This document shows positions 48,773 to 54,418 of a DNA stretch of 64,000 bases, one piece after another. The stretch covers positions 2,589,001-2,653,000 of the forward strand of contig CP054184.1 in the NCBI GenBank assembly GCA_015709715.1, in the 5' to 3' direction. The position numbers were made by a program, and so were the translations under genes. The notes below the pieces were generated by a model. It was given only the letters and a program-made list of their open reading frames with translations. It had not been told where the DNA came from and did not search any database. This DNA is from Nitrospira sp. (GTDB taxonomy: Bacteria; Nitrospirota; Nitrospiria; Nitrospirales; Nitrospiraceae). Each line of letters starts with the position of its first letter. The stretch's first letter is position 1.

Positions 48773-49099
48773 TTACGATCGAAACAGTAGGATCACGCCA
48801 AGGGACACCGAGAGCAGGACAGTTGCTGCAAGCACGCTCCACGCCATTGAGAGCGAGCGCTGTGTAGCGGCCAGCGTGAGGTGGAGCTGGTGGATGCGGT
48901 CGACTTGCGCGCGCATGGTTTCCTGATGGGCGTCGAGCTGCTCTTGCAATGCTGCGATGGCGGGATCCGGAGGGGCAGGGTTTGCCGGAGTCGGCGTGCG
49001 GCGTCGCTCGAAGGTCTTGATGAGGTCCGGAGCCTTGTCGATCACGACAGGGAGCAACTTCCTCGCGATCTGTAGCGCTGCTGTCCATGGAATGGTCAT
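48773..49099 (-). CDS. Coiled-coil protein with C-terminal membrane helix
   Basis: A 108-residue protein: N-terminal helical part, Pro-rich linker (RRTPTPANPAPPDPA), coiled coil (IAALQEQLDAHQETMRAQVD) and a C-terminal membrane helix (SVLAATVLLSVSLGVILL). It would be tail-anchored with its bulk in the cytosol. GGGG Shine-Dalgarno before ATG 49099. It is divergently oriented to the ZorA-like gene, 278 bases away, and may be regulated with it. No known family. Confidence 0.6.
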   Translation of the reverse strand: MTIPWTAALQIARKLLPVVIDKAPDLIKTFERRRTPTPANPAPPDPAIAALQEQLDAHQETMRAQVDRIHQLHLTLAATQRSLSMAWSVLAATVLLSVSLGVILLFRS

Positions 49100-49377
49100 A
49101 TTCCCCCGTTGGGTGTGTCTGGATATTAGACAGGAGTGGACGAGCGGCTGCAAGGGCGGGTAGCCGCGGCGATGTCGGATAGGAATTTGAACATTGGATT
49201 CGATGATACCCTGCAGAAATTTCTCGCGTACGGCAGTTCTTGCCCGGCGCCCGCCATGCGACTGCCGCATCGAAACATCGTAAGCCCATAGTTTCAGGTG
49301 CTTAGAACGCAGCTGATTTTGGCGTGAAAGTTGAAATTAGAAGGTCGGTCATCCAACGCGTAGGAGGTGCCGGCCCG

Positions 49378-50622
49378 ATGATGTCAATCTGGGAATTATT
49401 CAGTCAGGACGTAGCCCTCTTCGGGAGTCTCCATAGTCCCCTGTTAAGCTGGTTGGGCTCCTGCGGATTGGTGATATTTTTTTTGTGGCATGTGGGACGT
49501 CTGACCAGTGCCGTCTCGTCGGTGCAAAGTTGCTACACGCGTGTGTGGCCGATCTTGAACGCCCTTGCCGCTGCGCGCAAGGGCCTTCAGTCGCAGTGGT
49601 TGACGATTCCGGCCTTGAGCGACAGCAAACGTCCCGCCCAACAGCCTGGCTCACAGGCCGACCGGATCGATTTAGACGATCTTCAGGCTCTCGACAAGGC
49701 CCTGCGTCGAGAACCTCGACTGGAGCAGGCATGGTTGCGGTTTCGCAAGACGTTTGTCATCGAACGCACCGCCTGGTTTATCGAGCCCAGAGTCTTCGCC
49801 ACGAGGTCCGCAGCCGAGTTTTTCCCTCGTGACCTTCTCCAGAGCCGTCTGAATCTGGCGTTCTACCATCAGTTTCCGTCCTTGATTACCGGATTAGGGC
49901 TGCTCCTGACTTTTCTCGCCATCCTCATTGGATTGAGCAAGCTTCATGCGGACGGATCGCATATTGTGGGGATTCAGGGTCTGATCAACAGCCTCGCCGG
50001 TAAATTCCTCACGTCGATCGTCGGCCTCATCTGTGCCAACCTCTTCGTCCTCGTCGAGAAATCGGTGTTGCACCGTTTGGCTACCACTCAGCAGCAATTT
50101 GCCACCGTGCTCGACGAACTGTTCCCGCGCAAGACGATGGAACAGATGCTGGAGAATTTCACGCCCGGCCACGGCAGTGGGGTTGGTCCGACCTCAAACC
50201 CTGTCTTGGTGCCGGGCTCTCCGGATCTCGGCGACCGGTTGGCTGGAGCCCTCAGTGATCGCCTGAGCCCGACGGTCACGGCGCTTCGAGAAGCCGTGGA
50301 GGTTCTGAGTCGGCGAGAAGGAGGCGTGCGCTCGGTTGTTCCGGACCGTTTGGCGGAGGAACTGTCTCGGGCGATGCAAGAGACTATGGCGGGGCCGATT
50401 CAGGAATTGAATCAGGCGATTCAGACGCTGGCTCGCTCCGTCGAAGACCTCAAGCGAGAGCGCCGTGCGACGGATGTCGTAGAGGCCGCTGGCCCGACGC
50501 CTGAAGAGGCTGCAGTGAAAGCCGGCTTCGACGAGGAGGAGCCCGCCCCGGAGGCCGGCATGGTGGGGCTTCGCTGGTTCGCCAATTGGCGTCAAGGTAC
50601 GGAAATGAAAGGTGTCATCTGA
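49378..50622 (+). CDS. ZorA-like MotA/TolQ/ExbB proton-channel protein
   Basis: A 414-residue inner-membrane protein with three helices: TM1 about 22-40, TM2 about 167-187 (FPSLITGLGLLLTFLAILIG) and TM3 about 207-229 (AGKFLTSIVGLICANLFVL). The FPSLxTGLGLLxTFLxIxxGL stretch is the ZorA-type form of the MotA/ExbB core. The C-terminal cytosolic tail (about 250-414) is helical but much shorter than the long tails of Zorya ZorA. With ZorB it would form a peptidoglycan-bound proton-driven stator. AGGAGGT (49362-49368) supports ATG 49378; a second ATG follows directly. Zorya genes C, D or E are absent nearby. Confidence 0.82.
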   Translation: MMSIWELFSQDVALFGSLHSPLLSWLGSCGLVIFFLWHVGRLTSAVSSVQSCYTRVWPILNALAAARKGLQSQWLTIPALSDSKRPAQQPGSQADRIDLDDLQALDKALRREPRLEQAWLRFRKTFVIERTAWFIEPRVFATRSAAEFFPRDLLQSRLNLAFYHQFPSLITGLGLLLTFLAILIGLSKLHADGSHIVGIQGLINSLAGKFLTSIVGLICANLFVLVEKSVLHRLATTQQQFATVLDELFPRKTMEQMLENFTPGHGSGVGPTSNPVLVPGSPDLGDRLAGALSDRLSPTVTALREAVEVLSRREGGVRSVVPDRLAEELSRAMQETMAGPIQELNQAIQTLARSVEDLKRERRATDVVEAAGPTPEEAAVKAGFDEEEPAPEAGMVGLRWFANWRQGTEMKGVI

Positions 50623-50623
50623 G

Positions 50624-51370
50624 ATGAACCACGATCCGACGACGCAGGGGAGCGACCATACCTCTACCCTCACCATCGGTGTGACCGATCTCATGACCTC
50701 GCTGGCGGTCATCTTTATTCTGCTCTTCAGTGCCTATGTGACCAAGGTATCTGAAACGGAATCGCAGGCCAAGGTCCCGGTTCCGCCGCCGGCGCAACCG
50801 CTCGCGCGGACCACGACCGACGACATCAAGGGAGCGCTCCGCGAACATTTCCAACGGTTCAACCTGTCTCTGGAAGCAGATCCGGGTGATCGCGACGTGG
50901 TGCGGATCGTCGTGCCGGAGGCCTTGCTCAATTTTGAGTTTGGAAAGGGAACGTTGTCCCTCTCGGCTGATCGGTTTTTGACGGAGGCCATGCCGACCTA
51001 TGCGGGTGTGCTCTGCGGTGCATTGCGGGACCGTATCGAGTCCTTGGTCATCGAAGGCCACACCGATGATCGAGGGTCGGATATCTACAATCTGAAACTG
51101 AGCCAAGAGCGTTCGCTGAGCGTGATGGGCAAGGGGTTGCAGGTCATCAAGGAACGAGCGCCTTGGGCCTATCGCTGCTTTCACGAAAAGACGTCGGCGA
51201 GCGGGCGGGGGCGCCAAGATCTCATCGTCGATGAATGGCACCTGCCTGATCGGGAAAAGAGCCGACGGGTAGTGTTCAAAATCCGTCTCCGCTCTGCGGC
51301 AGAACCGGCCGACATGGGTCGACCTCTCGGGACCAGCAACGGCCAGGCGTTCGTCTCCGGCCTGTATTAG
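50624..51370 (+). CDS. ZorB-like MotB/OmpA-domain protein
   Basis: A 248-residue protein: one membrane helix (about 19-40) carrying the proton-path Asp in GVTDLMTSLAVIFILL (D22), a Pro linker, and an OmpA-like peptidoglycan-binding domain (VIEGHTDDRGSDIYNLKLSQ, about 141-165, then ERSLSVM). This matches ZorB and MotB partners of ZorA/MotA. ATG 50624 lies two bases after the zorA-like stop, giving a two-gene operon. Its 3' end overlaps the convergent FGE-type gene by four bases. Confidence 0.82.
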   Translation: MNHDPTTQGSDHTSTLTIGVTDLMTSLAVIFILLFSAYVTKVSETESQAKVPVPPPAQPLARTTTDDIKGALREHFQRFNLSLEADPGDRDVVRIVVPEALLNFEFGKGTLSLSADRFLTEAMPTYAGVLCGALRDRIESLVIEGHTDDRGSDIYNLKLSQERSLSVMGKGLQVIKERAPWAYRCFHEKTSASGRGRQDLIVDEWHLPDREKSRRVVFKIRLRSAAEPADMGRPLGTSNGQAFVSGLY

Positions 51371-52239
51371 CGAGTGCTCTGGTTGGGCGCATCCTTCGCG
51401 CAGCGAAACCCCACGTCGTTCCGCCTGGCATCCGGGGTATAGCCCGCGCGATTCGTCGATCGGATGGATTTGGCATCGTTGTTCCAGGCGCCTCCCCGCA
51501 TGACCTTGAGCGGACCGACGGAGGGGCCGGGAGGGTTGTCCCGAGGGCTGTACTGGTAGTAGGCCGGGTCGTACCAGTCGGCGACCCACTCCCAGAGGTT
51601 CCCCGCAAGATCGTAGACTCCGCTTCGGCTTTTCCCTAATTCGTACCGACCCACATTAGTCAAGGTGTCATACCCTCGCCACTTGGTTTGGCCGGCGTTG
51701 ACGTGGCCTTTGGTCGGGTGTTCATCTCCCCAGGGATAGAGCCGGCCTTCGGTTCCCCGCGCCGCCATTTCCCACTCTGCTTCCGTCGGCAACCGTTTGC
51801 CTACCCACCGACAATAGTCGCGGGCGTCGTACCAGTCGACGCCTGTCACCGGTTTGTTGCCATGTGGACCTGCGAGAGCTTCGTTCCACTTGAACGGCGG
51901 GTCTGGTTTTTGTGAGGCCAGAAACTCGGCATAGCGGGAGACGGTCACTTCAAAGGCATCGAGATAAAACGCTTTGATGACTATGCGATGGACTGGCTGC
52001 TCGTCGTCATCGCCTCGGTCACTCCCCATCGCCAACTCCCCTGCTGGGATACCCACCATGGGAACGGCGTTCCGCGAATCGAGTTGGGCCGCCGTGATTT
52101 GTGTGCCGGCGATCAGATGTCGGTCCGTGAGATCGGGACGAGGAACTGGAAGTCTCGGTTCGGCGGCGCCGGCTTGAGCGGTGATCAGGAAAGCGCTCGC
52201 AACGGCTATGGAAAAAAGGCGTATCCTGACTTCACGCAT
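51367..52239 (-). CDS. FGE-sulfatase (SUMF1/EgtB-type) domain secreted protein
   Basis: A 290-residue protein with signal peptide (to about residue 26, GAA-EPR) and a complete FGE-type C-lectin-fold domain: MVGIPAGELAMGSD, HRIVIKAFYLDAFEVT, GKRLPTEAEWEMAARG, GNLWEWVADWYD and VMRGGAWNN. The copper-binding Cys pair of true formylglycine-generating enzymes is not visible near the C terminus, so it is more likely a binding or other FGE-like enzyme. Periplasmic. Converges with the zorB-like gene. Confidence 0.88.
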   Translation of the reverse strand: MREVRIRLFSIAVASAFLITAQAGAAEPRLPVPRPDLTDRHLIAGTQITAAQLDSRNAVPMVGIPAGELAMGSDRGDDDEQPVHRIVIKAFYLDAFEVTVSRYAEFLASQKPDPPFKWNEALAGPHGNKPVTGVDWYDARDYCRWVGKRLPTEAEWEMAARGTEGRLYPWGDEHPTKGHVNAGQTKWRGYDTLTNVGRYELGKSRSGVYDLAGNLWEWVADWYDPAYYQYSPRDNPPGPSVGPLKVMRGGAWNNDAKSIRSTNRAGYTPDARRNDVGFRCAKDAPNQSTR

Positions 52240-53349: not shown

Positions 53350-54418
53350 GGTTTCAAGTTCCAAGTGCAACGGGTGAATGATGGCGCAGCTGCGCATAGA
53401 CCTCCAGGGGCGTGGCAAAGTGGAGACATTTCCGTGGGCGGGTGTTCAGCCGATAGGCGATGGCGTTCAATTCCCGTTGGGTATAGCGCGACAGATCGGT
53501 GCCCTTCGGCAAATACTGACGCAGGAGTCCGTTCGTATTCTCGTTGGTTCCCCGTTGCCAGGGGCAATGGGGATCGGCAAAAAAGATACGGATCGTCAGA
53601 CGCTTCGCCAACCGTTCGTGAGCGGCCATCTCTTTGCCCCGATCATAGGTCAGGGTGGAGCGCAGCGCGGCTGGCACGTGCCGAAGCTTCTTGGAGAACC
53701 CGCGATAGGCCCTCTCGGCATCGGTGCCCTCCATTTTCGCCAACAAGACCAGGCGAGTAGTCCGCTCAACCAGGGTGCCAACGGCCGATCTATTGCGAGC
53801 ACCTTTGAGCAAGTCGCCTTCCCAGTGTCCGGGCACCGTCCGGGTCGCCACTTCAGCAGGGCGTGCGGCAATCGGGGTCATGTTGGGAATCTGGCCGCGG
53901 CGGTCGGCCCCCCGTGCGCGCGGCCGACGCGTCTTGCGTGCCTGACGCAGGGCCGCCAACAATTCGGTCCGCAAGGCGCCACGTGGCAGCACGTACAGGC
54001 CCGCATAGATGGTTTCGGCAGACAGCCGCTTCCTCATGTCGTCAGGATACATGCGGCGGAGGCGTCCAGCAATCTGCTCGGGCGAGCACCCTGCCGCCAG
54101 ATGCCGCTGGACGTACTGCCACAACCACGGGTCGAGGAGTTTTCGAAGCCGCCGTGGGTGATGCGCTCGGATGCCTGCGTGGCGCTGCGCTGTACAGGCC
54201 CGATAGGGACAGCCGCGTGTGGTGTTCCGGGCTACCTCGCGGCTCACGGTGCTCGGGGCTCGTCCCAAGATCCGCGCCATTGTTCGGAGCGAATGGCCAT
54301 GGGTCAGCCCCAGACTCAACGTCTCACGCTCTTCAGCACTCAGGTGTGTGTACGCTCTCGTGTGCATGGCAACACCGTAGCCCATTCGGGCTGGCAGTGT
54401 TGCACTTGGAGTTAGACC
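53350..54418. mobile_element. IS30-family insertion sequence
   Basis: One transposase gene is flanked by inverted repeats sharing the 12-base core TCCAAGTGCAAC (53360-53371) / GTTGCACTTGGA (54399-54410), with weaker matching outward to about 53350 and 54418. Exact ends and target duplication are unresolved, because the transposase stop lies six bases outside the core. The element sits between the peroxiredoxin and an unknown gene and breaks no recognised gene. Confidence 0.85.
53354..54367 (-). CDS. IS30-family transposase
   Basis: A 337-residue DDE transposase: N-terminal helix-turn-helix (LSAEERETLSLGLTHGHSL, APSTVSREVARN) and catalytic residues in GHWEGDLL (Asp), LTYDRGKEM (Asp) and GTNENTNGLLRQYLP (Glu). 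IS30-type. ATG 54367 gives MHTRAYTHLSAEE. Looks intact, so the element may be active. Confidence 0.95.
   Translation of the reverse strand: MHTRAYTHLSAEERETLSLGLTHGHSLRTMARILGRAPSTVSREVARNTTRGCPYRACTAQRHAGIRAHHPRRLRKLLDPWLWQYVQRHLAAGCSPEQIAGRLRRMYPDDMRKRLSAETIYAGLYVLPRGALRTELLAALRQARKTRRPRARGADRRGQIPNMTPIAARPAEVATRTVPGHWEGDLLKGARNRSAVGTLVERTTRLVLLAKMEGTDAERAYRGFSKKLRHVPAALRSTLTYDRGKEMAAHERLAKRLTIRIFFADPHCPWQRGTNENTNGLLRQYLPKGTDLSRYTQRELNAIAYRLNTRPRKCLHFATPLEVYAQLRHHSPVALGT

What the first reader, a model, noticed from the sequence alone, without database searches (positions are those of the whole stretch)
49378..51370. Orphan ZorA/ZorB-like proton-channel pair
Two adjacent genes encode a MotA/ExbB-type protein with ZorA-like FPSLxTGLGLLxTFL core and an OmpA-domain partner with the channel Asp (GVTDLM). 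In Zorya antiphage systems these form a stator that activates ZorC/D/E effectors. Here no C, D or E genes are near; neighbours are a coiled-coil membrane protein and an FGE-type protein. ZorA's tail is also short. It may be a reduced defence module, a stator for an unknown partner, or a distinct envelope motor.
Basis: partly seen in the sequence, partly recalled or inferred. Interest (0 to 1): 0.7.

Follow-up and report, generated by a model that had tools for sequence, protein, structure and literature searches.

The report
Stand-alone ZorA/ZorB motor of Nitrospira
Nitrospira carry, as an ordinary core gene pair rather than a mobile defence island, the ion-driven motor half of the Zorya anti-phage system without any of its known DNA-attacking partners, which suggests that an immune motor lost its effectors and was kept for another job in the cell envelope.

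Summary
In detail: window 49378-50622 (+) and 50624-51370 (+) encode a ZorA and a ZorB homologue. Sequence and fold searches place them with ZorA/ZorB, not MotAB or TolQR; channel and peptidoglycan-binding residues are intact. No ZorC, ZorD or ZorE was found in this complete 4.16-Mb genome; the ZorC and ZorE searches worked on positive controls.

It occurs once in all 29 Nitrospira genomes searched (one as a fragment), in the same gene order at the loci compared, with dN/dS about 0.1, and recurs in related Nitrospirales. Across genera the flanks change; only zorA-zorB adjacency and, mostly, a short element upstream of zorA persist. No third partner recurs, so the coiled-coil and FGE-type neighbours are not partners.

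In a tree the pairs form one clade (support 99-100) beside complete Zorya I systems. Their ZorA tails are shorter than in every Zorya sampled, but two tail helices and, in Nitrospira, a near-invariant C-terminal RWFANW motif persist.

Best reading: a vertically inherited, wall-anchored 5:2 ion motor of Zorya descent that lost its nuclease partners and now has a core envelope role. That function is inferred; depolarising defence or an unlinked effector is not excluded.

The parts
49378..50622 (+). zorA-like gene (414 aa): three predicted membrane helices (within H22-74, H160-191, H198-248), then a short cytoplasmic tail (helices 284-314 and 322-370, variable acidic linker, conserved C-terminal RWFANWRQG)
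   Evidence: AlphaFold2, mean pLDDT 76; best folds 8qyd/8qyk ZorA, E 2e-8 to 5e-8; conservation by region
50624..51370 (+). zorB-like gene (248 aa): membrane helix with the channel Asp22 (GVTDLMTSLA) and a periplasmic OmpA/MotB-type peptidoglycan-binding domain (GHTDDRGSDIYNLKLSQERS)
   Evidence: D22, the TD of GHTD and the N-L-L-S-Q-R-S residues invariant in 27 sequences; 8vvi_A E 1.3e-9
49320..49335 (+). conserved element TGGCGTGAAAGTTGAA, 42 nt before the zorA start; resembles a sigma-54 -24/-12 promoter except at the -12 C
   Evidence: kept upstream of zorA in all 28 genus loci aligned and in most other-genus loci; only match to TGGCNYGNAANTTGWW in this genome; rpoN present
49364..49369 (+). 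ribosome-binding site AGGAGG of zorA
   Evidence: sequence; GGAGG conserved in the aligned loci

Best explanation
zorA and zorB encode a self-contained 5:2 ion-driven inner-membrane motor of Zorya descent, kept as a vertically inherited core module (upstream element, zorA, zorB) in Nitrospira and related Nitrospirales. By homology with solved ZorAB, five ZorA surround two ZorB helices; ions pass between ZorB Asp22 and a polar ring that includes ZorA Thr178 and Ser213; the ZorB OmpA-type domains anchor to peptidoglycan and probably gate the motor by the state of the cell wall. The lineage lost ZorC and ZorD and most of the ZorA tail, so the output is no longer recruitment of the Zorya nuclease. 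I think it most likely serves a core envelope function: sensing or servicing peptidoglycan, with the short tail and its C-terminal motif turning or recruiting a cytoplasmic protein encoded elsewhere. Shown: family, gene content, conservation, synteny, tree position, intact channel and wall-binding residues, short but conserved tail. Inferred: assembly, ion flow, gating, loss of defence, output.
For: Family. Core gene: once in 29 of 29 Nitrospira genomes, one of them a fragment; in 56 of 246 Nitrospirota genomes, nearly all Nitrospiraceae-level relatives and one other family of the order. Same gene order in the Nitrospira loci compared. dN/dS about 0.1 for both genes. Across genera only zorA-zorB adjacency is kept. 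No ZorC in 61 genomes (positive controls); no ZorD in this genome at 1e-30; ZorE only a 23-codon scrap (control 1.4e-86). Tree: stand-alone clade support 99 and 100, beside Zorya I loci L104 and L140. Tail 206-283 aa against 323-687 aa in the sampled Zorya, with conserved helices and C-terminal motif. The genome already has flagellar-type MotAB and three TolQR/ExbBD-type pairs, so this is an additional motor. Upstream element follows the pair.
Against: No function was tested; 'envelope role' rests on what the pair lacks and on its inheritance. A defence gene can be core. The pair is absent in many smaller Nitrospirales genomes and in some large ones of the same family, so it is not essential in the order. 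The tail is retained and partly conserved, which suggests an unknown cytoplasmic partner. Stand-alone pairs outside Nitrospirota were not surveyed, so origin by loss rests on 11-12 comparison systems and a tree whose root is uncertain.
Confidence: 0.55

Rival explanations
1. Minimal defence: the pair still protects against phage without a nuclease, sensing wall damage at infection through ZorB and opening the channel to depolarise the cell, as first proposed for Zorya.
For: Channel Asp, polar ring and wall-binding residues all intact. Clade lies beside complete Zorya I. The depolarisation idea is cited in PMC8565338.
Against: ZorAB alone does not protect in tested Zorya (PMC11890865; PMC8565338), and deletion of the ZorA tail abolishes defence. 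Single-copy core inheritance in fixed context with low dN/dS is unlike the uneven spread described for Zorya.
Confidence: 0.18
2. Zorya-like defence with an unlinked effector: the short tail recruits a nuclease or helicase encoded elsewhere in the genome, replacing ZorC/D/E.
For: Tail helices and the C-terminal RWFANW motif are conserved like a docking site; several Nitrospira genomes carry large SNF2-family helicases that match the ZorD helicase core (about 250 bits).
Against: No ZorC in 61 genomes, no ZorD at 1e-30 in this genome; the SNF2 hits cover only the helicase core and are missing from most genus members that have the pair. No gene recurs beside the pair.
Confidence: 0.15
3. An alternative stator for flagellar or surface motility.
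For: Ion-driven 5:2 architecture; the genome has a flagellar-type MotAB.
Against: Best matches are ZorA/ZorB by sequence and fold; MotA folds rank far lower; no MotB plug match; no flagellar genes seen near it.
Confidence: 0.05
4. Relic: the pair is a decaying, functionless remnant of a Zorya system.
For: Missing C/D and short tail.
Against: dN/dS of 0.07-0.23 over ten species pairs, invariant channel and wall-binding residues, conserved upstream element, presence in every genus genome searched.
Confidence: 0.02

Closest known systems
Zorya type I ZorA/ZorB (EcZorAB 8qyd; Shewanella 8vvn; complete system L104 in another Nitrospirota family)
   Same: Adjacent zorA-zorB; three-helix ZorA with GLxxTF and KF(L/V)(T/S)S polar positions; ZorB channel Asp and OmpA-type wall-binding domain; nearest relatives in the tree
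   Different: No ZorC or ZorD; tail about half as long or less; core gene in fixed context with its own upstream element; Ca2+-site glutamates E86/E89 of EcZorA replaced by R121 and K124 (alignment; the complete L104 also lacks them)
Zorya type II ZorA/ZorB (8vvi; Psychrobacter L123)
   Same: Shorter tail than type I; ZorB best PDB match by sequence and fold is 8vvi
   Different: No ZorE; has the N-terminal region and 98-158 domain shared with type I ZorA; falls beside type I L104 in the tree
Flagellar MotAB, TolQR and ExbBD
   Same: Wider family of 5:2 ion-driven motors; ZorB wall-binding domain resembles those of MotB, Pal and YiaD
   Different: Weaker fold matches (TolQ E 5e-3, MotA E above 0.2); the genome has its own separate MotAB and three TolQR/ExbBD-type pairs

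Membership tests
ZorA/ZorB protein families | profile match to ZorA and ZorB models better than to MotAB/TolQR | tested here: met
   NCBIfam ZorA/ZorB models match but below their curated cut-offs
ZorA/ZorB protein families | ZorB channel Asp and ZorA Ser/Thr ring | tested here: met
   D22 invariant in 27 ZorB; T178 and S213 invariant in 30 ZorA
ZorA/ZorB protein families | OmpA-type peptidoglycan-binding domain with NxxLSxxR motif in ZorB | tested here: met
ZorA/ZorB protein families | 5:2 assembly | not testable with these tools
   only single chains could be modelled
Zorya type I defence system | ZorC and ZorD present with zorAB | tested here: not met
   (ZorC control rings in G263 and a Klebsiella plasmid)
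Zorya type II defence system | ZorE HNH nickase present with zorAB | tested here: not met
   (control 1.4e-86; own genome only a 23-codon match, E 0.003)
Zorya type III defence system | ZorF and ZorG present with zorAB | not tested
   not searched genome-wide; no gene recurs beside the pair
Zorya defence systems | long ZorA cytoplasmic tail needed for defence | tested here: not met
   206-283 aa after GLxxTF against 323-687 aa; requirement of the tail from PMC11890865
Zorya defence systems | patchy distribution, on islands or plasmids | tested here: not met
   no plasmid match to ZorA
Zorya defence systems | protection against phage | not testable with these tools
   needs an experiment

The most novel reading that the evidence does not exclude
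A defence motor was domesticated: in the Nitrospirales a Zorya I ZorAB lost its nuclease partners, has its own conserved upstream element and became a core, wall-anchored ion motor with a new, non-immune output.
Probability: 0.5. Interest if true: 0.75.

Novelty: new variant of a known kind. Interest (0 to 1): 0.55.

Why it matters
ZorAB is known as the sensing motor of an anti-phage system. A core, effector-free version in an abundant group of nitrifiers would show that the motor has a use of its own, would separate the motor's function from its nuclease, and would offer a natural short-tailed, effector-free ZorAB for testing what wall-gated ion flow does. It also warns that ZorA/ZorB hits alone do not mark a defence system.

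Tried and rejected
Coiled-coil gene (48773-49105, -) and FGE-type gene (51367-52239, -) as partners: conserved only as part of the genus gene order, the first missing in several loci, neither recurring beside the pair in other genera. CBS-domain-like gene just upstream in some loci (seen in L034): not present here. MotAB/TolQR assignment: rejected. ZorD candidates in other Nitrospira: SNF2 helicase cores only. Regulon search with the upstream element: the other hits in five complete genomes lie inside long reading frames. Plasmid and phage collections: no close homologue. Sigma-70 promoter scan: nothing. Literature on stand-alone ZorAB or on Zorya in Nitrospira: none found in the held library; one structure paper was not held.

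Full report
What is there. At 49378-50622 (+) lies a 414-aa ZorA homologue, and one base after its stop codon, at 50624-51370 (+), a 248-aa ZorB homologue. PADLOC scores are ZorA1 1.7e-24 and ZorB1 7.9e-39. The PDB sequences matched by ZorA below E 0.001 are all ZorA-type chains, and the best for ZorB are ZorB chains. AlphaFold2 models (mean pLDDT 76 and 80) have ZorA and ZorB structures as best matches (8qyd_A 2.3e-8; 8vvi_A 1.3e-9); TolQ follows at 5e-3 and MotA far lower. The NCBIfam ZorA/ZorB models match only below their curated cut-offs, so the pair is divergent within the family.

Functional residues. ZorB D22, the TD of GHTD and the N-L-L-S-Q-R-S residues of the OmpA domain are invariant in 27 sequences. 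ZorA T178 (GLLLTF) and S213 (KFLTS) are invariant in 30 sequences and align with the equivalent Thr and Ser positions of Zorya ZorA (the Ser/Thr ring is described in PMC11890865). The driving ion cannot be read from this. The glutamates of the EcZorA calcium site are replaced by R121 and K124, but the complete Zorya L104 lacks them too, so this does not separate defence from non-defence.

No partners. No EH-signature/ZorC gene was found in the complete genome or in 60 relatives; the same ZorC profile finds the gene in a Nitrospirota Zorya and in a Klebsiella plasmid. The ZorD profile finds nothing at 1e-30 in this genome, and in some relatives only the shared SNF2 helicase core. ZorE gives only a 23-codon match at E 0.003, against 1.4e-86 in the control. 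ZorF and ZorG were not searched genome-wide. The genome has a flagellar-type MotAB and three TolQR/ExbBD-type pairs elsewhere, so this is an additional motor.

A core module. The ZorA gene is found once in each of the 29 Nitrospira genomes searched, 71-78% identical to the window copy (one genome holds only a fragment at a contig end). The loci compared share the order rfbC, fur, rubrerythrin, Fe-S protein, PTPS-like gene, zorA, zorB, FGE, thioredoxin, peroxiredoxin, typA, PBP1A (gene names by sequence reading, not all tested). In the phylum, 56 of 246 genomes have ZorB, nearly all in this family and one other of the order. In other genera the pair sits in unrelated surroundings, and the only gene that regularly accompanies zorA is zorB. 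dN/dS is 0.07-0.23 in ten species pairs. This is not how Zorya systems are reported to be distributed (PMC11890865).

Upstream element. In all 28 genus loci aligned, a block TGGC-N-Y-G-N4-TTG stands just upstream of zorA while the rest has diverged. Related forms such as TGGCACGGAAGTTGAG and CGGCACGGAAGTTGAG stand before zorA in most other-genus loci, at different chromosomal places; all 19 loci with a match to YGGCAYRNAANTTGAG, out of 131 searched, were fetched for this gene pair. In this genome TGGCNYGNAANTTGWW occurs once, at 49320. It resembles a sigma-54 promoter apart from the -12 C; rpoN is present. That it is a promoter is inference.

Descent. A tree of the ZorA core plus ZorB puts the stand-alone pairs in one clade (support 99; 100). 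Its nearest neighbours are L104, a complete Zorya I (ZorA 636 aa, ZorB, ZorC, ZorD) from another Nitrospirota family, and L140, a contig from the viral collection with ZorA, ZorB, an unassigned gene and ZorD (grouping support 88). The other sampled branches carry effector genes or unidentified candidates for them, so loss of the effectors in the stand-alone clade is the simplest account unless the root lies on its own branch. From the GLxxTF motif to the end, stand-alone ZorA have 206-283 residues and the sampled Zorya 323-687.

The tail. Within the genus the membrane-core regions are 95-98% conserved, the two tail helices 91% and 84%, the acidic linker 53%, and the C-terminal RWFANWRQG region 92%. 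Other genera end differently, some with a tryptophan-containing basic tip. A conserved tip behind a variable linker looks like a docking or membrane-contact site; this is inference.

Mechanism and rivals. In tested Zorya the wall-binding domain, the channel Asp, the ZorA tail and every partner gene are needed for defence, and ZorAB alone does not protect (PMC11890865; PMC8565338). With the motor and wall anchor intact, the tail shortened, the partners gone and inheritance like that of a housekeeping gene, the most likely role is a wall-gated ion motor for the cell envelope with an unknown output (0.55). Depolarising defence (0.18), an unlinked effector (0.15) and motility (0.05) are less likely; a dead relic (0.02) is contradicted by selection. 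Nothing here shows ion flow, assembly or phenotype.

Noticed in passing
window 49320-49335; also genus loci and most other-genus loci: Conserved sigma-54-like element (TGGCGTGAAAGTTGAA here) that travels with zorA and occurs once in this genome in that form.
   Followed up: partly
L104:769-7850 (another Nitrospirota family): Complete Zorya I system (ZorA, ZorB, ZorC, ZorD), the nearest complete relative of the stand-alone pair.
   Followed up: yes
L140:3063-10405 (IMG/VR contig): ZorA-ZorB followed by a 551-aa gene with no PADLOC match in the ZorC position and a ZorD, on a contig classed as viral.
   Followed up: partly
window 53354-54385 (-): Transposase-like gene (IS30 type by eye) in the gene block downstream; no homologue in the related loci compared, so probably a recent insertion.
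   Followed up: partly
L034:9363-9802: CBS-domain-like gene (by eye) between the coiled-coil gene and zorA in at least one Nitrospira; not present at this place in the window.
   Followed up: no
window 48773-49105 (-): Small coiled-coil protein with one C-terminal membrane helix, 50-59% identical across many Nitrospira but absent at this place in several.
   Followed up: partly
L125:3268-8365 (Prevotella plasmid): ZorAB-like pair followed by a hypothetical gene and an FtsK-like gene rather than known Zorya effectors.
   Followed up: no
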